In this document: positions 2,191 through 48,151 of the stretch, one piece after another
Layout of the letters: the number at the start of each line of letters is the position of its first letter
Position numbering within the stretch: the first letter of the stretch is position 1
The notes under the pieces: generated by a model
What the model was told of the DNA's origin: nothing
Database searches by the model: none
What the model saw: only the letters and a program-made list of their open reading frames with translations
Source: a virus
Direction: 5' to 3' (one strand)
DNA length: 51,610 nucleotides
Virus record (IMG/VR): IMGVR_UViG_3300022744_000037
Coordinates: 1 to 51,610 of that record
Made by a program: the position numbers and the translations under genes

Positions 2191-2219
2191 ATTGTATAAC
2201 AAATAAGCTAACTTGTCAA
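2191..2219 (-). promoter_or_regulatory. Sigma70-type promoter for the ATPase/vWA operon
   Basis: On the minus strand, -35 TTGACA (2214-2219), a 17-bp spacer and -10 TACAAT (2191-2196). The spacer contains GTTAGC. Predicted +1 is near 2184, giving a leader of about 89 nt. Confidence 0.8.
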
Positions 2220-2554
2220 GTAGTTAGCCGGCTGACCGAAGTCAGTGGTCGCAGTTGGGTCAGGCACACGGTGGTGGCGAAGTCCTCCGTAGTTGACTGG
2301 TAGAAGTACGCTTTTCGGCGGCTGCCGTAGCCGTTGCCGTTGCCGTAGCCGTTGCCGTCGCCTCTGCCGTGGCCGTTGCCTCTGCCGTTGCCGTTGCTGT
2401 AGCCGTCGCCTCTGCCGTTGCCGTTGCTGTAGCCGTTGCCGTTGCTGTAGCCGTTGCCGTTGCCGTAGCCGTTGCCGTTGCCGTTGCCGTAGCCGTTGCC
2501 GTTGCCGTTGCCGCCGCCGCCGCCGTTGCCGCGTGCACAGAGAAGGACGCTCAT
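2216..2554 (-). CDS. Gly-rich small protein, DFxTTxxLxxLRPL family, member A
   Basis: 112 residues: MSVLL start, a Gly-X tract (mostly GN, GY, GR, GD) at about 9-77, then GSRRKAYFYQSTTEDFATTV and a C-terminal LTQLRPL. Six window proteins share this C-terminal motif or a variant. The start overlaps the stop of member B in ATGA, so translation is probably coupled. The DNA is mosaic: the segment coding KAYFYQSTTE matches members C and D, while the last part (2245-2284) matches member B in 39 of 40 positions. Low-complexity reading frames on the other strand and in other frames are shadows, because only this frame has the coupled start and conserved ends. Function unknown. Confidence 0.75.
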   Translation of the reverse strand: MSVLLCARGNGGGGGNGNGNGYGNGNGNGYGNGNGYSNGNGYSNGNGRGDGYSNGNGRGNGHGRGDGNGYGNGNGYGSRRKAYFYQSTTEDFATTVCLTQLRPLTSVSRLTT

Positions 2555-2814
2555 AGCCGTAGCTCCGCGAGTGGTCGCAGTTGGGTCAGGTACACGGTGG
2601 TGGCGAAGTCGTGGGATATGGCTGGGAAGTGCTTGGCGTTGCGCGAGGTTCCGCTGCCTACACCTCCCCCATAGAGGTCGCCGTTCACCCGGACTGTGTG
2701 ACGGCTCCGGCCGTCACCGTCGCCTTTGTCTCGGGTGTACCCACCGCCCGCGCCGTCACCATCGCCGAAGCCTACGGCCCCGTCACCGTAACCGTTCTGG
2801 TGGAGGACTGTCAC
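2551..2814 (-). CDS. Gly-rich small protein, DFxTTxxLxxLRPL family, member B
   Basis: 87 residues from a GTG at 2814 that overlaps the TGA of the upstream gene (GTGA). This start is chosen over an upstream in-frame ATG because it reproduces the family N-terminus (M-T-V-L) and the NTGA coupling of members A, C and D. The body is Gly/Asp-rich (GYGDG, GFGDGDG) without a perfect repeat, and the end reads SHDFATTVYLTQLRPLAE. It is followed by member A with an ATGA overlap. Function unknown. Confidence 0.7.
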   Translation of the reverse strand: MTVLHQNGYGDGAVGFGDGDGAGGGYTRDKGDGDGRSRHTVRVNGDLYGGGVGSGTSRNAKHFPAISHDFATTVYLTQLRPLAELRL

Positions 2815-3116
2815 ACCACACAGCGGATCTGCATGATGACCGCGTGGAAGGGGACTTCGGTGTACCCGCAAGGGTCCAGCACGATGTCTTTGGTTGGGCC
2901 ATCCAGGGCGATCTCGCCCAGGCCCATCGTGGTGCCCCACGAACGGATCACGTTGCCTTCATAGAGGACCATAAGGTCGCCTTGACGCTCAACGTAACCG
3001 ATAACCACCCAGCCGCTCTCGATCACAACGATCTTCTTGATGGCGGTGCGGGGAACAGTCTGGTCGTCCGAAGTCAGGCCGGCGGTTGCCAGTTCGGTGT
3101 TGGTCTTGTTGCTCAT
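2811..3116 (-). CDS. Conserved phage protein of unknown function
   Basis: 101 residues, MSNKTNTELATAGLTSDD start. The middle is beta-rich with ESGWVVIGYVERQGDLMVL, then a conserved-looking WGTTMGLGEIALDGPT and PCGYTEVPFHAVI. I recognise the style of a small conserved phage protein but cannot name a function. The start ATG has an upstream AGGAAGT. It leads the B-A pair, to which it is coupled by a GTGA overlap. Confidence 0.75.
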   Translation of the reverse strand: MSNKTNTELATAGLTSDDQTVPRTAIKKIVVIESGWVVIGYVERQGDLMVLYEGNVIRSWGTTMGLGEIALDGPTKDIVLDPCGYTEVPFHAVIMQIRCVV

Positions 3117-3255
3117 TTGGGTACTTCCTGAATTGCTGGTAAAACACCGCGACGCCGAGTGTCGCGGAACAAACGCACATGGCTAGAACCATGAGTGCGT
3201 ACTTATAAGCGGACTCGGCCCGCTGTTCAATCTTGGCGTGTTGTTTATCGCGCAC
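2989..3255 (-). CDS. Possible small membrane protein overlapping its neighbour
   Basis: A GTG-started frame of 88 codons with one strong hydrophobic segment, YALMVLAMCVCSATLGVAVF. The membrane segment lies in the otherwise empty 128-bp gap between two genes, but the last 43 codons overlap the 101-residue gene in another frame. The GTG overlaps the end of the preceding gene by about 10 bp. No ATG start and a weak ribosome site; it may be a chance frame. Confidence 0.3.
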   Translation of the reverse strand: MRDKQHAKIEQRAESAYKYALMVLAMCVCSATLGVAVFYQQFRKYPNEQQDQHRTGNRRPDFGRPDCSPHRHQEDRCDRERLGGYRLR

Positions 3256-3439
3256 TGTATGGCGAATATCTTTTGTGGGTCGTAACCCAGTCCCGAAGTT
3301 TTCGGTACTCGTCAGGGTGCCCTTGTACGCTCTGAAGAAACACGTCGCTACACTCATTCAGCCGTGCGGTTTGCCGCATGGCCCGCAGACGCATTTGATG
3401 TTCTTCGCGCTTTTCGGCGCGGTTGAGTTTCTTTTTCAT
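3245..3439 (-). CDS. Small basic protein of unknown function
   Basis: 64 residues, MKKKLNRAEKREEHQMRL start, strongly charged and probably helical. Its ATG overlaps the TGA of member C in ATGA, which supports real translation as the next cistron of that operon. No recognisable domain. Confidence 0.55.
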   Translation of the reverse strand: MKKKLNRAEKREEHQMRLRAMRQTARLNECSDVFLQSVQGHPDEYRKLRDWVTTHKRYSPYSAR

Positions 3440-3771
3440 GTGATCTCCGTGAGCGGCCGGAGCCGCGCTAGTTGGATAGTCTCAGTGAAGTCCTCCGTAG
3501 TTGACTGGTAGAAGTACGCTTTTCGGCGGCTGCCGTTGCCGTAGCCATTGCCTCTGCCGTCACCGTCACCGTCGCCGTAGCCGTTGCCGTTGCCGTTGCC
3601 TCTGCCGTTGCCTCTGCCGTAGCCGTAGCCGTAGCCGCCGCCGTTGCCGTCGCCGTTGCCGTTGCCTCTGCCGTAGCCGTAGCCGTAGCCGTAGCCGCCG
3701 TTGCCGTCGCCGTCGCCGTCGCCGTAGCCGTAGCCGTTGCCTCGGCCCCGTTTCTCTAAGAGGACAGTCAT
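3436..3771 (-). CDS. Gly-rich small protein, DFxTTxxLxxLRPL family, member C
   Basis: 111 residues: MTVLLEKRGRGNG start, about 70 residues of Gly-X (GN, GY, GD, GR), then GSRRKAYFYQSTTEDF and a C-terminal LARLRPLTE. It is almost the same protein as member D except for tract length: the pair shares exact DNA blocks of 38 bp at the 5' end and 92 bp at the 3' end, while the tract between is about 70 residues here and about 9 in D. The ATG overlaps the stop of D, and its own stop overlaps the next start. Function unknown. Confidence 0.75.
   Translation of the reverse strand: MTVLLEKRGRGNGYGYGDGDGDGNGGYGYGYGYGRGNGNGDGNGGGYGYGYGRGNGRGNGNGNGYGDGDGDGRGNGYGNGSRRKAYFYQSTTEDFTETIQLARLRPLTEIT
3445..3536. 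repeat. 92-bp exact direct repeat, copy 1
   Basis: Identical to 3780-3871. It encodes the conserved C-terminal half of member C. A 50-bp part of it also recurs at 2279-2328 in member A. Confidence 0.9.
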
Positions 3772-3923
3772 TGCCGTAGCTCCGTGAGCGGCCGGAGCCG
3801 CGCTAGTTGGATAGTCTCAGTGAAGTCCTCCGTAGTTGACTGGTAGAAGTACGCTTTTCGGCGGCTGCCGTAGCCGTTGCCGTTGCCGTTGCCTCGGCCC
3901 CGTTTCTCTAAGAGGACAGTCAA
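3768..3923 (-). CDS. Gly-rich small protein, DFxTTxxLxxLRPL family, member D (TTG start)
   Basis: 51 residues from a TTG at 3923 overlapping the TGA of the upstream gene (TTGA). The start is chosen because the following codons are identical to those after the ATG of member C. It contains only GNGNGNGYG where C has about 70 tract residues, then the same conserved end. The stop overlaps the start of C in ATGA. It is either the contracted product of a C-D duplication or the ancestor of an expanded C. A TTG start with a near-twin ATG gene suggests lower expression. Confidence 0.65.
   Translation of the reverse strand: MTVLLEKRGRGNGNGNGYGSRRKAYFYQSTTEDFTETIQLARLRPLTELRQ
3780..3871. repeat. 92-bp exact direct repeat, copy 2
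   Basis: Identical to 3445-3536; encodes the conserved C-terminal half of member D. Recombination between the copies would delete one gene cleanly in frame. Confidence 0.9.
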
Positions 3924-4480
3924 CCAAACATGCGCTGCAACTTGACGTACAGCGCCCTCGCTTCTGCGATAGTCAACGAGTCGAGGAACTCATCCACGGA
4001 CGCACGAACTGGCGCCACGGGGGGTGCAGTCATCAGTTGTTTCGCTGGCGGGAGTCCGATCAGGCTGTCGAGCGCTGTCTCGTCCACCTCATCCACAACC
4101 CGTGCTGCTTGCACAGTGGTCGCAGTGGGCCGCGCCTTGGGTGTCTTGGCGGGCTCGGGTGGCAGCTCGTACTGTTTCATGCCGTGAGGCGTCGAGTAGG
4201 TGTGTATGTTGCGGGCTTGGGGTGTGCCGGCCGGCCCAGGAAAATACATCTTCTTGGAGGAGCGGACGACAGCCCCGCGCTTGAACAGGATGAGCATGGT
4301 CTGGTTGACCCCGAGCGGCGTGATGTATGCCTTGAATACGCTGTGGAGGTCGGACGCTGTGACCCCTGGATGGTCCTTGATGTAGTTCCACAGACGCTCA
4401 CGCATCGACCCCCGCACTGGCGTGGGTGTGGGCGTAACTGTTTTGGCGTTTGCGAACGCGTGTTGCATAGTGGTTGTCAT
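3920..4480 (-). CDS. Putative winged-helix DNA-binding protein
   Basis: 186 residues. Residues 25-80 (MRERLWNYIKDHPGVTASDL to KKMYFP) look like a winged helix: three helices and a basic wing with KRGAVVRSSKK. A Pro/Ala-rich linker follows, then a short helical C-terminus, SVDEFLDSLTIAEARALYVKL. It heads the operon carrying members D and C and overlaps D by NTGA, so a regulatory link with those small proteins is possible. The assignment is from pattern only. Confidence 0.6.
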   Translation of the reverse strand: MTTTMQHAFANAKTVTPTPTPVRGSMRERLWNYIKDHPGVTASDLHSVFKAYITPLGVNQTMLILFKRGAVVRSSKKMYFPGPAGTPQARNIHTYSTPHGMKQYELPPEPAKTPKARPTATTVQAARVVDEVDETALDSLIGLPPAKQLMTAPPVAPVRASVDEFLDSLTIAEARALYVKLQRMFG

Positions 4481-4561
4481 TTCTTTCTCTCCAGGTTGAA
4501 CTCTACTAATTCATTCACTTGTGTTACCCACAGGGCGTGTCGCCCGAGTACAGCGCCATCA

Positions 4562-5356
4562 TCAGATCGTGTCCGGCTTAGGAAGCTCGCTCACAGGCAC
4601 TTCGATGTGCTTGTAGGCTCCGCCCCACACGAGCGCCCATTTGTCGATTTTCGCCAAGGCACTGGCGTCCACGACGCCGTATGCGGTACTGCGGCCGCAA
4701 GAGATCAGGTTGGCGTACAACTCAGGGTCGTCCAACTTGTCTACCATTTCATCCAGTACATTATGAGCAGTGGTCTTTCCGTAAAAGGCGCTGCGCTGCA
4801 CGACGTAGTGACCGCCACTCAGCGCTAACGTGGCCTGGGCCCACGCTTTGAACGGGGCGAGTCGTGCACGTACCGACTTGGCTATCTCTTTGTCCACTAC
4901 GCGGCGCGTAATCGTTGCAGGCGTGCAGTCATCAGCGAGCTTGTAGTAGCGCACGTCCTCCGGGTCCACGACGAACCGCAACGGCTCGCGGTGCTCGCGG
5001 TAGTATCTGACCGCCCCATTGTCACGCCGGACACCTACCCACATATGCCCTCGGTGGTTAATGGCGAGTAGATTAGAAGGAAGTAGGCGCCCGGCGAACA
5101 GGACCGTGCTCCGTGAGTCGTAGCTCCGAACCACCACGGAGCCGTCGGGAAAATACGCCACCACATCGGTGCGGTGGAGCCGCAGGGCCACCGACTTGTC
5201 TGCGTTGAGTATGACGCGCTTTGCGTCGTTGCGGCTGCGCTCCAGAGGGCGAATGTCCTCGCCCCGTCCGCGGATTGGTGTGATTTGTTCCCACTGCGCC
5301 AACGCTTCAGCGTAACTACGGATGCGTGGGAGGTTGCTGGTACTAATTGAAAACAT
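4562..5356 (-). CDS. Conserved phage protein of unknown function
   Basis: 264 residues, MFSISTSNLPRIRSYAEALA start. The N-terminal third has the feel of a conserved phage family (WEQITPIRGRGEDIRPL, then LHRTDVVAYFPDGSVVV). The rest is mixed alpha/beta with no motif I can assign. The ATG follows the shared leader with AGTAAGGATGTCC. It is the last gene of the set running down from 8000 before a small gap. Confidence 0.7.
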   Translation of the reverse strand: MFSISTSNLPRIRSYAEALAQWEQITPIRGRGEDIRPLERSRNDAKRVILNADKSVALRLHRTDVVAYFPDGSVVVRSYDSRSTVLFAGRLLPSNLLAINHRGHMWVGVRRDNGAVRYYREHREPLRFVVDPEDVRYYKLADDCTPATITRRVVDKEIAKSVRARLAPFKAWAQATLALSGGHYVVQRSAFYGKTTAHNVLDEMVDKLDDPELYANLISCGRSTAYGVVDASALAKIDKWALVWGGAYKHIEVPVSELPKPDTI

Positions 5357-5384
5357 AGGACATCCTTACTTACTGGTTATGTTG

Positions 5385-5603
5385 TCACTCGCCGGTGACG
5401 GTGTTCTTGTTGCGGGGCACGATGCAGAACTCGCGGAGCAGCACGCGGATAAGTTCTCCCACGTCCGGCTCACGAAAGTCGATGTTAGCGTTGGTCCATG
5501 CGTCGTCGATCGCCAAAGCAAGTTCGTGGTTCACTGCTTCTTCTTTGGTGTCGAACTGGCGTCCGTCGTCAGCGATGTAGATGGTCTTGGTGACTTGTCT
5601 CAT
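5385..5603 (-). CDS. Small conserved phage protein
   Basis: 72 residues, MRQVTKTIYIADDGRQFDTK start; this opening (a short strand, then DG-x-x-F-x-T-x-E-E-A) is common among small phage proteins. TAAGGAG lies a few bases before the ATG. Function unknown. Confidence 0.65.
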   Translation of the reverse strand: MRQVTKTIYIADDGRQFDTKEEAVNHELALAIDDAWTNANIDFREPDVGELIRVLLREFCIVPRNKNTVTGE

Positions 5604-5614
5604 GGTTTCGCTCC

Positions 5615-5899
5615 TTACAAACTTGTGTTGTTCATCTTGTCGGCCAACCTACCCGCAGCGGAATAGTGTTGAACCTGGTTGCGTTTCAAGTAGTCGTGCA
5701 GTTTCGTGCGGCTGTCTTTGAGGTGCGCCGTCGTGTCGCGTAACCTGTGCGCCACCAGAAGAATGTCCTCGTCCTTGGCTTCAGGGTGGTTCACCAGTTC
5801 CATGAACGTGTTGGTCATCTTCTTACGCAGCTCCGCCATGTGCAGCCACGTCTCCATGGCCGGCACGATCTTGGGGTTCGGCTTGGGCGTTGCAGTCAT
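5615..5899 (-). CDS. Small helical protein of unknown function
   Basis: 94 residues, almost all predicted helix (METWLHMAELRKKMTNTFME and later HRLRDTTAHLKDSRTKLHDY). The ATG overlaps the stop of the DUF2591 gene in ATGA. No domain recognised. Confidence 0.65.
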   Translation of the reverse strand: MTATPKPNPKIVPAMETWLHMAELRKKMTNTFMELVNHPEAKDEDILLVAHRLRDTTAHLKDSRTKLHDYLKRNQVQHYSAAGRLADKMNNTSL

Positions 5900-6258
5900 G
5901 TGAGTTCCCCCGGAACTTCGGCGGTTTCGCCCAGATTGCTGGTGACGTAGCAGCGCATGGCGGCTACGAGCGGGGTTGGGTCAATCGCTCTGCCGGCGAC
6001 GCAATAACCGTCCATGAAAGCAACCCAGCGCCCACCGCGTGTATCCACTCGCAAGGTAATTCGCTCTCGCTCAATAATTGCCCCGCCTCGTGCCCAGTCG
6101 GTGGATGGGCGGAATTGCACAAACCCACTGGTTACGCGTCCATACAGCACGTTACCGGCGTGAACTTCGCAATCGTTTTGCTTCCCCTCACACACCGCTA
6201 CCAGCCAATCCAATTGCTTCGGTGTGGCTTCAGATACCTTGATTGTTTTCATGTTCAT
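5896..6258 (-). CDS. DUF2591-like phage protein
   Basis: 120 residues. The opening MKTIKVSEATPKQLDWLVA with VCEG, and the closing GWVA-type segments (WARGGAIIERERITL, WVAFMDG), match the DUF2591 phage family as I know it; members are small lambdoid or podoviral early proteins of unknown role. GGAGTAAATC lies before the first ATG; a second ATG two codons later is possible. Confidence 0.75.
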   Translation of the reverse strand: MNMKTIKVSEATPKQLDWLVAVCEGKQNDCEVHAGNVLYGRVTSGFVQFRPSTDWARGGAIIERERITLRVDTRGGRWVAFMDGYCVAGRAIDPTPLVAAMRCYVTSNLGETAEVPGELT

Positions 6259-6261
6259 GAT

Positions 6262-6570
6262 TTACTCCTTGTTGGCAGCTTCTTCTGCCAGGATTTCCGC
6301 GATCAATTGTTTCGCCAACGCTTCGCGGTCTTGCTGTTCAGCCAACGAAACGCCGCGTGTGACGTAGTGCTGGGCAGGGTGTCGAACAAACTGGCACATA
6401 CACCCCGCAGGCAACTCATCGAGCGCATCGAGGCAATAACCATTGAGCGAAAGCACAAGGCCGCCTGGGTTGAGCGCATCGAAGTGGCGTTGGTCAATCA
6501 GGCCCAGTGTGTAGGCCCGGTTCTGGTACGGGCGCTCACTCTCTGCGGCGATGATTGCGGCGTGGTTCAT
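6262..6570 (-). CDS. Small protein of unknown function
   Basis: 102 residues, MNHAAIIAAESERPYQNRAY start. Mixed structure with a helical end (REALAKQLIAEILAEEAA). The ATG overlaps the previous stop (ATGA), and only 3 bp separate it from the DUF2591 gene, so it belongs to the coupled operon. No family recognised. Confidence 0.6.
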   Translation of the reverse strand: MNHAAIIAAESERPYQNRAYTLGLIDQRHFDALNPGGLVLSLNGYCLDALDELPAGCMCQFVRHPAQHYVTRGVSLAEQQDREALAKQLIAEILAEEAANKE

Positions 6571-6683
6571 GATTGCTCCACAACAGTGAATTGTTCGTAG
6601 TCACCTGCATCTGCAAGTGCCTTGTTCGCACCGATGGCCACGTATGCAGCGATGAGGGAGCGGATGGTTTCGTGGTGGGTCAT
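6567..6683 (-). CDS. 38-residue protein of unknown function
   Basis: A short cistron, MTHHETIRSLIAAYVAIGAN start and FTVVEQS end. Both its start and its stop overlap neighbours by ATGA, which is the main argument that it is real. A single helix is likely. Confidence 0.55.
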   Translation of the reverse strand: MTHHETIRSLIAAYVAIGANKALADAGDYEQFTVVEQS

Positions 6684-7261
6684 ACTGTGCCTCCTGCTGT
6701 TTGTGCGTTTTCTCCCGGTGCTGCCTCGTGTGCTGTCAGCAATTCGATAAGATCGTCGGCTTGTTGTTCGCGGGCTGCGTCCGATGCAGACTCCCATGCT
6801 GCGGCCAATGCTGCGTGCCTTGCCGCTGCCCCTGCTGCTGCCCTTGCTGCGGCACATACTGCCCATGCTGTGTACCGCGCAGCCTCTGATGCCTCTGCAG
6901 ACTCCCATGCTGCGTGCCCTGCTGCCTCTGCTGCTGCCCTTGCTGACGCAAGTTCCTCATCAGTCGCTTGGCCGTGCGCGTGGCGTTCGGCTACGTCAAG
7001 TGCGTTGAGGCTGCGCTGGTCGGTCAGCAGGTGCTGGACGCGTCGTGCGTACTTCACAGCAAGCAGCCGCCACAGATTGTCGTGCTGCGGCTCGGCTTGG
7101 AGACACCAAAATGCGTCATCGAGGCTGTTGCTTTCGAGCACAGCCGCGAGGGGGAGAGGTTCGTCGTCAGCCTTTGTTTTGTTGAGCGACTTGAGTAACT
7201 TCGCCCAGCCGCTGGCGCAGGGGTTGTGCTCGCGGATTCGGTTGAGGGTTGTATAAATCAT
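6680..7261 (-). CDS. Phage protein with Ala-rich repeat tail
   Basis: 193 residues from the ATG at 7261, which overlaps the upstream stop (ATGA); in-frame codons further upstream are ignored. The N-terminal half (REHNPCASGWAKLL, KTKADDEPLPLAAVLESN, LDDAFWCLQA) is a conserved domain often seen in phage and prophage proteins. The C-terminal half is a run of degenerate Ala-rich units (AARAAAGAAARHAALAAAWE) that matches short G+C-rich DNA repeats. Function unknown. Confidence 0.75.
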   Translation of the reverse strand: MIYTTLNRIREHNPCASGWAKLLKSLNKTKADDEPLPLAAVLESNSLDDAFWCLQAEPQHDNLWRLLAVKYARRVQHLLTDQRSLNALDVAERHAHGQATDEELASARAAAEAAGHAAWESAEASEAARYTAWAVCAAARAAAGAAARHAALAAAWESASDAAREQQADDLIELLTAHEAAPGENAQTAGGTV

Positions 7262-7590
7262 TTGGTGACTCCTATTGCTTTGGCGATGGCTGCTTGGGCC
7301 TTTTCTGTCCACGGCTCAATCGGCTTCCCGTCAATCCGCACGCCCTTGAATTTCCGTGCACGCCCGGCCATGATCGCGGTGGCTCTTGTCTTAACCCAAG
7401 ACAATCCGAGTGATCCGCGAAAGTACCAGCGACCGCTGTCATGGGGGATGCACTGAACCTCAGTCACCGGCTCGCCATTCATCCACACTAGGTAGTGCTG
7501 GTAGGCTATGCGCTGAATCGTCGCCAGCTTTCCATCTTGCAGCTTTTCGATACGATGATTTGGCATCTGAAGGCAACGTGGAATGCTCAT
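7258..7590 (-). CDS. Conserved phage protein of unknown function
   Basis: 110 residues, beta-rich: QHYLVWMNGEPVTEVQCI then GRWYFRGSLGLSWVKTRA. Start and stop overlap neighbours by ATGA. No named domain. Confidence 0.65.
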   Translation of the reverse strand: MSIPRCLQMPNHRIEKLQDGKLATIQRIAYQHYLVWMNGEPVTEVQCIPHDSGRWYFRGSLGLSWVKTRATAIMAGRARKFKGVRIDGKPIEPWTEKAQAAIAKAIGVTK

Positions 7591-8000
7591 GCTGCACCTC
7601 CACTCACATACTCACGCAGCGGCTTTGTCAGCGCGTCGAATGCGGCTCGGGCGTCGGCTTCGGTGAGCCATATGAGGCCGTTGTGGAGGGCGTGTCGATT
7701 TTCTTCGCCACCAAACCAAGTAGTGATCCTAGAACCACCAAACGAACTAAGCGACCAATACTTTGAGCCGTTAGCCGGAGCCACTTTCTCAGGAGCTGGC
7801 ACTTCGATGCCGTTGATTGTCACGGTGTCGGGAGCGACTCGGTAGCGTTCTGGTTTGAACTCTCCCCGCGCAATCTCATGCAAAAGTGCGCGACCTTGGC
7901 ACTGCACGGCCCATTCACCATCTCCGTTTTGCCACTGAATCTGCTTGCCTGCGGCGATACCCAATAAAACGTGGGCGTAGGGGTTGGGTTTGTTACTCAT
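7587..8000 (-). CDS. Conserved phage protein, first gene of the 8000-5385 operon
   Basis: 137 residues from MSNKPNPYAHVLLGIAAGKQ. An in-frame extension to 8126 is rejected because it would cross the promoter and the leader. The opening (IQWQNGDGEWAVQCQGRALL, then ERYRVAPDTVTINGIEVPAP) belongs to a frequent small phage protein type with a conserved W-x-x-Q core; the role is unknown. The ribosome site is AAGGAAGTCC within the shared leader, and a promoter lies about 100 bp upstream. Confidence 0.75.
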   Translation of the reverse strand: MSNKPNPYAHVLLGIAAGKQIQWQNGDGEWAVQCQGRALLHEIARGEFKPERYRVAPDTVTINGIEVPAPEKVAPANGSKYWSLSSFGGSRITTWFGGEENRHALHNGLIWLTEADARAAFDALTKPLREYVSGGAA

Positions 8001-8030
8001 GGTGGACTTCCTTACTACTTTGTTAGGGTG

Positions 8031-8049
8031 TCCCCGGTTTGGCCGGGGA
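8031..8049. repeat. Leader hairpin of the 8000 operon
   Basis: TCCCCGG and CCGGGGA form a 7-bp stem with a 5-nt loop between the promoter at 8098 and the start at 8000. It could stabilise the mRNA 5' end or attenuate transcription; no T-tract. Confidence 0.5.
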
Positions 8050-8097
8050 GCGAGGGAGTTGGTAGTCCCTAACGAAACACTACTCAACTGAATACAT

Positions 8098-8126
8098 ATT
8101 ATGCCACAAATAGTATCGTTTGTCAA
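8098..8126 (-). promoter_or_regulatory. Sigma70-type promoter for the 8000-5385 operon
   Basis: On the minus strand, TTGACA (8121-8126), a 17-bp spacer and CATAAT (8098-8103). Short CTAAC motifs lie upstream and in the leader. Confidence 0.8.
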
Positions 8127-8162
8127 GTGGTTAGTGGGTGTGTTAGGTGGTCTCGGATGCAG

Positions 8163-8465
8163 TCATAGTGGCCACTCCACCAAGGGTGCCACGCGTGCGA
8201 GGCGGACCGTGTTCATGAAGTCCCGCGCTATGGTGGGCAGCGCCCACATTGGTGGGTTCCAGTTGAGGCCGGTGCCCTCGTCGGATGCTCCCTTCCCGTC
8301 CCCTGTACAGATCAGGTGCCCGTTGTCGTCGTACTCCCTGCGGTGGTAATGAGGTGTTGGTAGAGCCTGTGGCTCGAGGCACTCCCGCCACTTTGAAGGG
8401 CTGTCTGCGTCGCATGGTTTGTACGGGCTGGCGTCCAGTAGGTACGTGATCTCGTAGTCGTCCAT
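8163..8465 (-). CDS. DFxxTxxLxxLRPL-family protein, member E
   Basis: 100 residues, MDDYEITYLLDASPYKP start. It has a short Gly-rich stretch, TGDGKGASDEGTG, and the family-type end ARDFMNTVRLARVAPLVEWP, in which LRPL is changed to VAPL. No hexanucleotide tract. It lies 3 bp downstream of member F, forming the third tandem pair. Function unknown. Confidence 0.65.
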   Translation of the reverse strand: MDDYEITYLLDASPYKPCDADSPSKWRECLEPQALPTPHYHRREYDDNGHLICTGDGKGASDEGTGLNWNPPMWALPTIARDFMNTVRLARVAPLVEWPL

Positions 8466-8468
8466 GTG

Positions 8469-8891
8469 TCACCTCTCAATCAGTGGGCGCAGCCGCGCCA
8501 GTAGGATGGTGGTGGAAAAGTCCCGGTCGATGGACCTCACGAGTCCTCGTGTCATCGGCTGCGCCCTAGGTGTTTGGTTGCGTGCTAGGCTTTTCATGAA
8601 CGCCCAACTGCCTTTACCCGTCCCATCGCCAGCGGCTACTTTGTGGTGGCGCCCCGCGTTGGTTGTGTAAACGGACCCACTCCCGTCCTCACGCGCTCCC
8701 GTGGTGAAGCGGTACTCCTCATCCGGCCCGTCCCCGTTATGCATCCCTTGGTTCGTGAAACTACTGCGTACCCTCCAGTCGTCCATGTTTGTCAGTGGGT
8801 CGAGTATGCTGTCGTTGAACCCCGCCGCCTGTGTAGCTGGCAGGTTTTGCCTCATCATCGCTTGAAGTTTCGATGTCAGTGTTGTGTTCAT
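8469..8891 (-). CDS. DFxxTxxLxxLRPL-family protein, member F
   Basis: 140 residues from MNTTLTSKLQAMMRQNLP; the ATG overlaps the stop of the upstream HTH gene (ATGA), so upstream in-frame codons are rejected. The middle is Gly-rich (NGDGPDEEYRF, AAGDGTGKGSW), and MDDWRVRSSF resembles the start of member E. The end is SIDRDFSTTILLARLRPLIE. It is the longest member and lacks the Gly-X repeat, so it may show the ancestral domain. Confidence 0.65.
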   Translation of the reverse strand: MNTTLTSKLQAMMRQNLPATQAAGFNDSILDPLTNMDDWRVRSSFTNQGMHNGDGPDEEYRFTTGAREDGSGSVYTTNAGRHHKVAAGDGTGKGSWAFMKSLARNQTPRAQPMTRGLVRSIDRDFSTTILLARLRPLIER

Positions 8892-10354
8892 TCTTCCTCC
8901 GTGTACCGAGTGTGCTTGAAGTGCCAACCTGATGGGTGGGTCTTGCCGTCGTTCATCGAGTTGCGGGGGTTCCCAGCTCTGCCTCGCCCTGACGTGAGCC
9001 GCCCCTCACTTGTCCGGTAGGCGTTCGCCGCCCGTTCCACCTGATCGCGCATGTTGGGTATGTACTTGTCGAGCTGATCTTCTGTCCAACCTCTGTACCG
9101 CGTCCCGTCTGCACTCCTGTCCCCGATCAGCGCCAGTCCATCAGCGCCAACCATGAGCTGAAGCCTCTCAAACATAACGACTGGCATCTTCATCGCCGTC
9201 GCTTCCCCGCCGGACAGCAACAGTCTAGGCAACCGCGCTCCTGTGTCTAAGTACCCCGCCGCGCCCCACAAGGTATCGTTCATTACTCGTGACTCGCTGT
9301 GTGCTCGCCGCACATAGGTCAGTGCCAGTTTGAAGTCCGTCCCAAACTTCGTGGTCGTGATGCCGCCGAACCCCAGGGCTCGAGCCCACGACTCCATTCG
9401 TTCCAAGGTTAGGTCCCGAACCACGGTTGGTGCTCTAGTGGCTTGCGGTTTGAGCGCGTCCGTTCGGGTGGTGCTACCGCGAGGGTCAACCTTCGCCGCC
9501 AGCCCCGTTCCCCGCAGTGTGTTGTCCCCGAACCAAGTCTTACCAGCCTCCCAAGCGAGGAGTAGGTTCTCCGACACACCTACGGCCTTTGCTACCTCGC
9601 TCTCTGGTAGTCCACGCACTTTACGTTCGTCGCGCAGGATGTGTATTAAGTCAAACAATGGAAGTGCCACCAGTGGAACCCCGGCGGGCGCCAGCACGCG
9701 CGGCCTTGCAGTCACTGAGGGGGGTAGCTCCGGTATCTGCGGCGAGGACAACATAACCGGCTCGATAGCTTGTCCCTTGAAGTCGTCCGCGCTCGTTTCG
9801 TCGAAGTCGGGCGGATCAAACAAGTTCACGTCGTTGCTGACGTTTACGTCTTTAGTTTCGAGCGTCACCCCACCTCCCCGCCGATCGTAAACGCCCGACG
9901 CCAGTAACTGCCCTAGCCTGTCCAGTTGCCCCAGCTTTAAGTGTTGCGCTAGGCGGTCGCCGTAGTACCGTTCGAGGTGTCGAACAGAACACCCAATCAG
10001 GGGTGCTAGTTCCGATTGTGGGAGACTTAGTTCGTCGAGTAGTGGTTTCAGTTCGTTGAAAATTTTGAAGCTCGACAACCCGTTCAAAGGCCACCGGAAC
10101 GACACTCCACCACGACCCACGCGGTACGCTAACGCGTTCACCTTGTTAGCTGGTGCCATTGCTGCGGCGGATTCTCCCTCCCTCCAGCGCCTGAAAGTTG
10201 CATATGAAACCCCGAACCGTTCGAGGTAGGCCCCACTCGTTCGAGCATGGGCGAGGTTCTTTTGACCCAGGGTTGCGGTGACACCACGTCGAAGGTAGGA
10301 CATGATGGTCAGGGGGTTTGAAGGGCGGGGAGGTAAAGTCACTTTGCAATTCAT
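8888..10354 (-). CDS. Large HTH-containing putative regulator
   Basis: 488 residues from the ATG at 10354 (MNCKVTLPPRPSNPL); an alternative ATG is at 10303. At least one XRE/Cro-like helix-turn-helix is visible, LPESEVAKAVGVSENLLLAW, and two earlier segments look helix-turn-helix-like (ERFGVSYATFRRWREGES; LSLPQSELAPLIGCSVRHLE). The C-terminal half shows no motif I can name. It is the first gene of the leftward block and is coupled to members F and E. A transcriptional regulator is the likely role; repressor or activator cannot be told from the sequence. Confidence 0.65.
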   Translation of the reverse strand: MNCKVTLPPRPSNPLTIMSYLRRGVTATLGQKNLAHARTSGAYLERFGVSYATFRRWREGESAAAMAPANKVNALAYRVGRGGVSFRWPLNGLSSFKIFNELKPLLDELSLPQSELAPLIGCSVRHLERYYGDRLAQHLKLGQLDRLGQLLASGVYDRRGGGVTLETKDVNVSNDVNLFDPPDFDETSADDFKGQAIEPVMLSSPQIPELPPSVTARPRVLAPAGVPLVALPLFDLIHILRDERKVRGLPESEVAKAVGVSENLLLAWEAGKTWFGDNTLRGTGLAAKVDPRGSTTRTDALKPQATRAPTVVRDLTLERMESWARALGFGGITTTKFGTDFKLALTYVRRAHSESRVMNDTLWGAAGYLDTGARLPRLLLSGGEATAMKMPVVMFERLQLMVGADGLALIGDRSADGTRYRGWTEDQLDKYIPNMRDQVERAANAYRTSEGRLTSGRGRAGNPRNSMNDGKTHPSGWHFKHTRYTEEE

Positions 10355-10408
10355 TTGTTGCGACCTGTAGTGATTGAGGGTGTTTTGAGGATTTCGAGGT
10401 GTTGGTGG

Positions 10409-10417
10409 ATTATGCCA
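10409..10417 (-). promoter_or_regulatory. Possible extended -10 for the HTH gene
   Basis: Minus strand TGGCATAAT, an extended -10, about 55 nt before the ATG at 10354. No good -35 is seen at the right distance. Confidence 0.3.
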
Positions 10418-10527
10418 TAACCGCAAGTGATCCTGGCCAGTGACAAGCCACTTTACAGTTTGGGGCCCGAGGCAGGGCAAAAATACAAATCAAACAATAC
10501 ATACAGAGTTTTTGTTATAGCTCATCT

Positions 10528-47289: not shown

Positions 47290-47333
47290 TCCCCGATAGC
47301 TCAGTTGGTAGAGCGACGGACTGTTAATCCGTA
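47290..47333 (+). other. attP core: 5' half of tRNA-Asn(GTT)
   Basis: The sequence from TCCCCGATAGCTCAGTTGGT through the anticodon stem-loop (GTT at 47323-47325) to position about 45 matches the 5' half of a bacterial tRNA-Asn; the expected 3' half is absent. It lies against the 3' end of the integrase gene, the usual place for attP. The phage probably recombines within this identity region and leaves a rebuilt tRNA whose 5' half is phage DNA. Not an intact tRNA gene. Confidence 0.8.
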
Positions 47334-48151
47334 CCTCGCAGGACATTATCTATTGTCCTGGACGATTCCATCAAATGCCCCACTTTTAGGTGGGCGTATC
47401 GACGAACCATCTGTACCGATTTCCAGCCGCCCATTTCCTGGAGCGCGTACATCTGCACCCCTGCCTGAGCCAGCCACGAAGCCCATGTGTGCCTCGTCGC
47501 ATCGTGCCACCGGAACCCCACTATCCCTGCCCGCTTCAAGGCGTCCTGCCATGCCCTGGTGTTGACGTTGCGCACCGGCTTGCCGCAGTAGGTGAAGACC
47601 CACCGGTGGTGCTTGCCTATCTGCTTCGTCAGGACGGACATGGCCACGTCGTTCAGTGGGACCCCGAGGGGCTCACCGTTCTTCGTGTCGGGCACATACA
47701 GCGCCCTGGCGTCCATGTCCACCCAATCCCATTGCATATGCTTGACGTTGCCCTGGCGTAGACCGGTGGCGAGTGCGAAAAGGAACATATCCGCGGCGTG
47801 CGGTTGCAGCTCCTGAATCAGTCGCTGCACCTGTTCTTTCGTCAAGCTCCGAATTCTCCGCTTGGGCTCCGGGTACGTCTTGAGCGCTGGCATCGCGTCC
47901 AACCACCCCCACTCTCGTTGCGCGGCTCGCATGATCGCTCGGATGAGCGCCACATACCGGTTACGGGTGGCAGGGGTGTTCTTCTGCTCTACCACTTTTC
48001 GCACCATGTCTCGGGTGATGTCCCTGAGGCGGCGACCTTCAAGATGCGGGCCCAACCAATCCAGCTTTGCCCTGTCGCCACGGATGTCTGCCTTCTCACT
48101 GCGTTCATCCAACCACTTCTGTGCTGCTTCTTCCCACCGGTAGGTTTCCAT
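47324..48151 (-). CDS. int: Tyrosine integrase
   Basis: 275 residues. Catalytic set: R132 (ATGLRQG), K157 (TKNG), H216 and R220 (WHDATRHT), W243 at the His/Trp position, Y252 (VRRYAHL). The N-terminal region (1-100) is a SAM-like core-binding domain. AGGAGCC precedes the ATG. Its TAA stop lies in the tRNA anticodon, so the last codons are part of the attP identity region. It directs site-specific integration into the host tRNA-Asn gene. Confidence 0.93.
   Translation of the reverse strand: METYRWEEAAQKWLDERSEKADIRGDRAKLDWLGPHLEGRRLRDITRDMVRKVVEQKNTPATRNRYVALIRAIMRAAQREWGWLDAMPALKTYPEPKRRIRSLTKEQVQRLIQELQPHAADMFLFALATGLRQGNVKHMQWDWVDMDARALYVPDTKNGEPLGVPLNDVAMSVLTKQIGKHHRWVFTYCGKPVRNVNTRAWQDALKRAGIVGFRWHDATRHTWASWLAQAGVQMYALQEMGGWKSVQMVRRYAHLKVGHLMESSRTIDNVLRGTD

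What the first reader, a model, noticed from the sequence alone, without database searches (positions are those of the whole stretch)
2216..8891. Six-member family of small proteins in three tandem pairs sharing a DFxxTxxLxxLRPL C-terminus
Members A (2216-2554), B (2551-2814), C (3436-3771), D (3768-3923), E (8163-8465) and F (8469-8891) end in the same motif or a variant (E has VAPL for LRPL). They come as pairs F-E, D-C and B-A, each pair directly downstream of a different non-family gene, two of which look DNA-binding. The N-terminal parts differ and are Gly-rich. Several paralogues with a fixed tail and a changing Gly-rich body in one phage suggest a modular effector or targeting-tag family. 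I know of no description of this.
Basis: partly seen in the sequence, partly recalled or inferred. Interest (0 to 1): 0.8.

Follow-up and report, generated by a model that had tools for sequence, protein, structure and literature searches.

The report
Gly-repeat phage proteins sharing a tail
Six small phage genes share one C-terminal tail that is copied between them by recombination, and four of them belong to a widespread, apparently undescribed phage gene pair in which a conserved small protein (DUF6948-like) sits beside a fast-changing glycine-repeat protein; what the pair does is unknown.

Summary
The six C-termini are real. DFxxT[IV]xLxx[LV]xPL ends A-F, 3-9 residues before each stop, with no seventh copy. 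Codons differ mainly at third positions, so the protein is conserved. Each member is chained to the gene before it, five by a 4-nt start/stop overlap. A is a chimera: C's body joined to B's tail exactly at the DF codons.

The tail itself is an orphan: nothing convincing in IMG/VR, 85,000 genomes, cultured phages, Pfam or PHROGs. The context is not. The gene before B-A (2811-3116) is DUF6948-like. In IMG/VR, DUF6948-like genes and (Gly-X)n genes (X = Tyr, Asp, Asn, Ser) are strongly linked: 58 of 69 (GX)n loci have one directly upstream, against 0 of 108 other loci. Conversely, 51 of 53 clusters of this subfamily have (GX)n next door. Tandem (GX)n copies with a fixed tail and changing body recur in unrelated phages with other tails.

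So A-D are a tailed, multiplied version of a common two-gene phage module; E and F share only the tail. The mechanism is inferred: a disordered, self-associating (GX)n partner of a folded DUF6948-like protein, with the tail as docking segment. I found no paper on it.

The parts
2216..2554 (-). A: (Gly-X)n protein, 112 aa; body like C, tail like B; last gene of its array
2551..2814 (-). B: degenerate (Gly-X)n protein, 87 aa, GTG start, overlaps the stop of 2811-3116 by 4 nt
2811..3116 (-). DUF6948-like gene, 101 aa, directly before B-A
   Evidence: 49% identity over 73 aa to the L130 gene; E 7e-18 to a profile trained without the window
3245..3439 (-). 64-aa ORF whose ATG overlaps C's stop by 4 nt; not a family member
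3436..3771 (-). C: (Gly-X)n protein, 111 aa
3768..3923 (-). D: as C with a short tract, 51 aa, TTG start, overlaps the stop of 3920-4480 by 4 nt
3920..4480 (-). 186-aa gene before D-C; weak MarR-like similarity only
   Evidence: PHROG 1687 at E 0.11
8163..8465 (-). E: tail-sharing protein without the Gly repeat, 100 aa (VAPL variant)
8469..8891 (-). F: tail-sharing protein without the Gly repeat, 140 aa; overlaps the stop of 8888-10480 by 4 nt
8888..10480 (-). 530-aa helix-turn-helix protein before F-E
   Evidence: Pfam HTH_3 above cut-off
2243..2284 (-). tail motif of A (others: B 2569-2610, C 3451-3492, D 3786-3827, E 8181-8222, F 8481-8522)
2191..2219 (-). sigma-70-like promoter at the end of A, before the ATPase gene
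   Evidence: TTGACA-17-TACAAT, 11 of 12; consensus match only
8098..8126 (-). sigma-70-like promoter after E
   Evidence: TTGACA-17-CATAAT, 11 of 12; consensus match only

Best explanation
A-D are a multiplied, tail-bearing version of the variable partner in a widespread two-gene phage module: a conserved small DUF6948-like protein (here 2811-3116) plus an adjacent (Gly-X)n protein, usually read from a start overlapping or close to its stop codon. The (Gly-X)n gene duplicates in tandem, its tract changes in whole hexamers, and its C-terminal tail is kept by selection and copied between paralogues by gene conversion. E and F carry the same tail on bodies without the repeat. Shown here: the family, codon-level conservation of the tail, the chimera, the linkage in both directions, and hexamer-level change of the tract between near-identical Barbavirus genomes. 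Inferred: the two proteins act together; the tract (Tyr spaced by Gly, Asp, Asn, Ser) is disordered and works through composition and weak self-association; the conserved tail is the specific docking segment; several copies raise the dose or give variants of one adaptor. The physiological target is not known.
For: Tail conserved at residue level, mismatches mostly at third codon positions. Chimera A with breakpoint at the DF codons. Gene 2811-3116 is 49% identical to a DUF6948-like gene that also precedes a (GX)n gene and hits a window-free profile at E 7e-18. (GX)n ORFs have a DUF6948-like gene directly upstream in 58 of 69 loci, against 0 of 108 other loci. Sampled by the DUF6948-like subfamily instead: 60 of 78 loci followed by (GX)n; 44 downstream, 7 upstream and 2 neither among 53 clusters, random stretches 37 of 971. 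One ORF with DUF6948 and (GX)43 fused, L139. Tandem (GX)n copies with fixed ends in L160, L119, L147, L292. Barbavirus: flanking genes 314/315 and 210/210 identical, (GX)n protein 69 against 79 and 83 aa.
Against: Only B-A follows the DUF6948-like gene; D-C and F-E follow other genes. E and F lack the tract. The gene 2811-3116 has no direct Pfam DUF6948 hit; membership rests on intermediate sequences. The tail is absent from all other (GX)n proteins seen, so it cannot be essential to the module in general. Structure prediction of E and F was uninformative. No binding, assembly or phenotype data exist.
Confidence: 0.6

Rival explanations
1. Effector or targeting-tag family: the tail binds one host protein and the Gly-rich body is a spacer or variable head; the DUF6948-like neighbour is incidental.
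For: The tail is the only invariant part and sits on unlike bodies, including E and F; no other phage shares it, as expected of a lineage-specific host target.
Against: The DUF6948-like neighbour is not incidental in other phages. No host target or similarity to a known binding motif was found.
Confidence: 0.2
2. The conserved stretch works as nucleic acid: ribosome-binding and coupling signal, regulatory site or recombination hot spot; the protein is a by-product.
For: Start/stop overlaps and a GGAG before the next ATG in B, C, D and E but not in A, which ends at a promoter. Gly codons in tracts are frozen, mostly GGC even in AT-rich phages.
Against: Among old copies the tail differs mostly at third codon positions while residues are kept. 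The GGAG lies after the motif, not in it.
Confidence: 0.1
3. Neutral tandem duplication: recent copies kept alike only by gene conversion, without function.
For: C/D tails and A/B tails are nearly identical in DNA; no relatives carry the tail.
Against: B, D, E and F tails have diverged at most third positions yet keep the residues; the DUF6948-(GX)n linkage is general.
Confidence: 0.08

Closest known systems
DUF6948 (Pfam PF22253)
   Same: The gene before B-A belongs to a divergent branch joined to DUF6948 proteins by intermediate sequences.
   Different: No direct Pfam hit in the window; family of unknown function; the description concerns single domains, not a pair with (Gly-X)n.
(Gly-X)n hypothetical proteins of phages, e.g. 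Barbavirus gp017 and RcapNL_00046
   Same: Hexamer-coded Gly-X tract, small size, place next to a DUF6948-like gene.
   Different: A, C and D add a 30-residue conserved C-terminal part; four copies in one genome, two of them away from the DUF6948-like gene.
Tandem (Gly-X)n arrays with fixed tails: L160 (EPNLTSAGATVVEE), L292 (TALTTTDGDGWVIHILT)
   Same: Several paralogues with constant ends and changing Gly-rich body, in a record that also has a DUF6948-like gene.
   Different: Different tail sequence; members without the repeat (like E and F) were not seen there.
SSB-type C-terminal tips and other short docking tails behind disordered linkers (from memory)
   Same: Gly-rich disordered stretch followed by a short conserved C-terminal segment.
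   Different: No DNA-binding domain and no acidic DDDIPF-like tip; a resemblance of layout only, not tested.

Membership tests
DUF6948 (PF22253), for gene 2811-3116 | Direct match to the Pfam model above its cut-off | tested here: not met
   No Pfam family at E <= 1; no match of PF22253 in the window
DUF6948-like genes next to (Gly-X)n genes | Match to a profile of such genes trained without the window | tested here: met
   E 7e-18, the only hit in the window; without the two nearest subfamily members the smaller profile misses it
(Gly-X)n phage proteins, for A, B, C, D | Tract of alternating Gly and Tyr/Asp/Asn/Ser, one Gly codon | tested here: met
   A and C: GGC 28 of 30 in the longest tracts; D short; B degenerate
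(Gly-X)n phage proteins, for E and F | Tract of alternating Gly and Tyr/Asp/Asn/Ser | tested here: not met
   Only GDGTGKG and GDGKG pieces
DUF6948-(Gly-X)n gene pair | (Gly-X)n gene adjacent to a DUF6948-like gene | tested here: met
   B overlaps the stop of 2811-3116 by 4 nt; C, D, E and F are not adjacent to it
DUF6948-(Gly-X)n gene pair | The two proteins act together | not testable with these tools
   Fusion in L139 is indirect evidence only
A known family carrying the DFxxTxxLxxLRPL tail | Tail found in a described family | tested here: not met
   No match in Pfam, PHROGs, NCBIfam, cultured phages, IMG/VR or GTDB genomes
Type II toxin-antitoxin (HipB-like regulator at 8888-10480) | NCBIfam couple_hipB above its cut-off | tested here: not met
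   21.8 bits against a cut-off of 71.65

The most novel reading that the evidence does not exclude
DUF6948-like plus (Gly-X)n is an undescribed, widespread phage two-component system in which a conserved folded protein works with a hypervariable disordered partner whose codons are frozen while its Tyr/Asp/Asn/Ser order is free; the proteins form assemblies during infection and lineage-specific tails, such as the one in this window, set what is recruited.
Probability: 0.3. Interest if true: 0.85.

Novelty: new variant of a known kind. Interest (0 to 1): 0.6.

Why it matters
Phage early regions are full of small proteins of unknown function, and low-complexity ones are easily overlooked because search tools mask them. 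Linking (Gly-X)n proteins to one conserved partner turns scattered hypothetical genes into a module that can be tested in cultured phages (RcapNL in R. capsulatus SB1003, Barbaviruses in Rheinheimera BAL341). The tract is a natural experiment: 115 cultured Barbavirus genomes hold the pair, and between types whose flanking genes are almost identical the tracts differ in length and order. The window's family adds a handle: a conserved tail that can be cut off or moved.

Tried and rejected
Homologues of the tail: tblastn of D, E and F in cultured phages, close-relative scans with F and D, two degenerate DNA patterns in IMG/VR, one in 85,000 genomes, profile search in 30 related records, protein search with F there, and a tail profile over 33,159 C-termini of fetched loci. 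All hits were chance ORFs or unrelated proteins; a portal protein in L232 matches as TEDFSITIQFASVRPL, which I treat as chance because the pattern selected it. Pfam, PHROGs and NCBIfam: only low-complexity hits for the Gly-rich members (TrAA12, PHROG 10432). AlphaFold of F and E: mean pLDDT 39 and 38, not used, so no fold search was run. DUF6948 profile against PDB sequences: nothing at E <= 10 (78). I suspected an Sm-like barrel for DUF6948 (a weak SM-ATX hit, E 0.031) but could not test it. Similarity of the tail to the ends of (GX)n proteins in L247 and L264 (PDINFYICQLQLL, TDDVSIVLCQMRLL) is visible by eye but not significant. Growth of the tract by single-hexamer slippage alone: adjacent identical units are only slightly above shuffles (0.335 against 0.316) and repeated blocks slightly longer than expected (6.36 against 4.91), so block recombination fits better. 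Barbavirus transcriptome: the paper reports two temporal clusters (PMC9305737), but the gene table is a supplement I could not open.

Full report
What was claimed and what is there. The window is a 51.6-kb virus record. Its portal and major head protein match PHROGs 332 and 267; the nearest cultured relatives by portal are Rhizobium phages at 37% identity, then Pelagibacter, Roseobacter and Puniceispirillum phages. It encodes an integrase. The six ORFs lie on the - strand in the leftward arm between a gene for an ATPase (PHROG 1297; 1055-2095) and the terminase. The C-terminal motif is present in all six, 3-9 residues before the stop, and nowhere else. It is not chance.

Protein or DNA? Comparing B, D, E and F, mismatches fall mostly at third codon positions (for D against F: 2, 2 and 9 at positions 1, 2 and 3). 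So the residues are under selection. Recent copying is also visible. D and C have identical tail DNA. A is a chimera: 57 of 60 nt upstream of GACTTC match C, while 34 of the 36 nt after it match B. The tail therefore moves between paralogues as a block, with the breakpoint at the DF codons.

Arrangement. A, B, C, D and F start with a 4-nt overlap on the gene before (ATGA, GTGA, ATGA, TTGA, ATGA); E starts a few bases after F's stop. A GGAG lies just upstream of the next ATG at the end of B, C, D and E, but not of A, which ends at a promoter. The two best sigma-70-like sites of the arm lie directly after A (2219-2191) and E (8126-8098), so both arrays seem to end transcription units (consensus matches only). 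In the related contig L004 the homologue of the 264-aa gene (4562-5356) abuts the ATPase gene, so the block with D-C and B-A is accessory.

The tail is an orphan. tblastn in 50,697 phage records, relative scans, degenerate patterns over IMG/VR and over 85,000 prokaryote genomes, and a profile over 33,159 C-termini of fetched loci gave only chance hits. Relatives with a looser version of the motif could be missed, and metagenome contigs were not available.

The Gly-rich bodies are not an orphan kind. Most encode small proteins: a short head, a (Gly-X)n tract, sometimes a short tail. Across 110 tracts X is Tyr 1158, Asp 720, Asn 484, Ser 471 and everything else rare. Within a phage one Gly codon is usually used almost exclusively (155 of 155 GGC in L160), mostly GGC even in AT-rich phages (19 of 28 low-GC loci at 90% or more, against a mean of 25% in their long ORFs), and the third base of the X codon is nearly as fixed, while the order of X is close to random. 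Tandem paralogues with fixed ends recur: five in L160 (tail EPNLTSAGATVVEE), four in L119, four in L116, three in L122, two in L147, four in L292 with tail TALTTTDGDGWVIHILT.

The partner gene. The ORF directly before these genes was repeatedly of one type; of ten such upstream proteins sent to Pfam, six hit DUF6948 above its cut-off. A profile from 64 such genes, with the window left out, finds a DUF6948-like gene directly upstream of the tract in 58 of 69 loci that hold enough upstream DNA, elsewhere in the locus in 5 more, and in 0 of 108 other fetched loci (1.12 Mb in all). In the window it hits only 2811-3116, at E 7e-18; that is the gene before B-A. The converse was sampled by the window gene's own subfamily: of 78 loci, 60 have a (GX)n ORF at its 3' end. 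After merging near-identical genes, 53 clusters split into 44 with (GX)n downstream, 7 only upstream and 2 without, against 37 of 971 random stretches. Fusions point the same way: L139 carries DUF6948 followed by (GX)43 in one ORF, and the PHROG 18306 profile is matched by the tracts of A and C at positions 61-137 (weakly, E 0.01-0.02) and by DUF6948 proteins at 150-238.

Natural variation. Barbavirus genomes carry the pair as gp018-gp017 (Barba1A numbering), annotated only as hypothetical. Between Barba1A and Barba19A the DUF6948-like gene differs at 1 of 315 nt and the gene after the tract at 0 of 210, but the (GX)n protein is 69 against 79 residues (83 in Barba31A) with units reordered; Barba15S has gained one hexamer. 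So the tract changes fast, in frame, in an otherwise frozen neighbourhood. Rhodobacter phage RcapNL has the same pair.

How it most likely works. Shown: the two genes are linked, closely spaced and sometimes fused; the tract keeps composition and frame but neither order nor length; the tail keeps its residues. Inferred: they act as one unit; a Tyr-Gly-Asp/Asn/Ser tract without fixed order is disordered and acts through composition, most simply by weak self-association; the tail, the one part with a fixed sequence, is where a specific contact is made; E and F reuse the tail on other bodies. I give the structural part (tailed, multiplied partner of a DUF6948-like module) about 0.85 and the assembly/docking mechanism about 0.35; the stated confidence of 0.6 is a compromise for the combined statement. 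The target in the cell is open.

Novelty. DUF6948 is catalogued as a family of unknown function; I found no paper naming it and none describing (Gly-X)n phage proteins (open-access full text only). The window's tail is new as a sequence. I file the finding as a new variant of a kind known at sequence level, and put the reading that the whole module is a new sort of system in the novel case. All claims of absence are limited to the collections named.

Noticed in passing
window 47290-47343 (+): A tRNA-like match (Rfam RF00005, 30.5 bits, gathering score 29) overlaps the 3' end of the integrase gene 47324-48151 (-); ARAGORN finds no complete tRNA. Possibly an attachment site derived from a tRNA gene.
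   Followed up: no
window 8142-8165 (-): After E's last codons the DNA continues ATGACTGCATCC..., like the ATGACTGTCCTC start of C: possibly the remnant of a lost further copy.
   Followed up: no
L317, L320, L321, L322 (Barbavirus): (Gly-X)n gene rearranged between Barbavirus types whose flanking genes are 99.7-100% identical at DNA level.
   Followed up: partly
loci L112-L231: In (Gly-X)n tracts the Gly codon is usually frozen to GGC, also in AT-rich phages, although the order of the X residues is nearly random; synonymous changes are almost absent. I have no full explanation.
   Followed up: partly
L172 1659-2282, L139 4963-5622: (Gly-X)n tracts fused to other domains of unknown function: DUF7666 in L172, DUF6948 in L139.
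   Followed up: no
window 6680-7312 (-): 210-aa ORF with an Ala-rich stretch of similar short units (AAAEAAGHAAWESAEASEAARYTAWAVCAAARAAAG...), overlapped in another frame by ORF 6567-6908.
   Followed up: no
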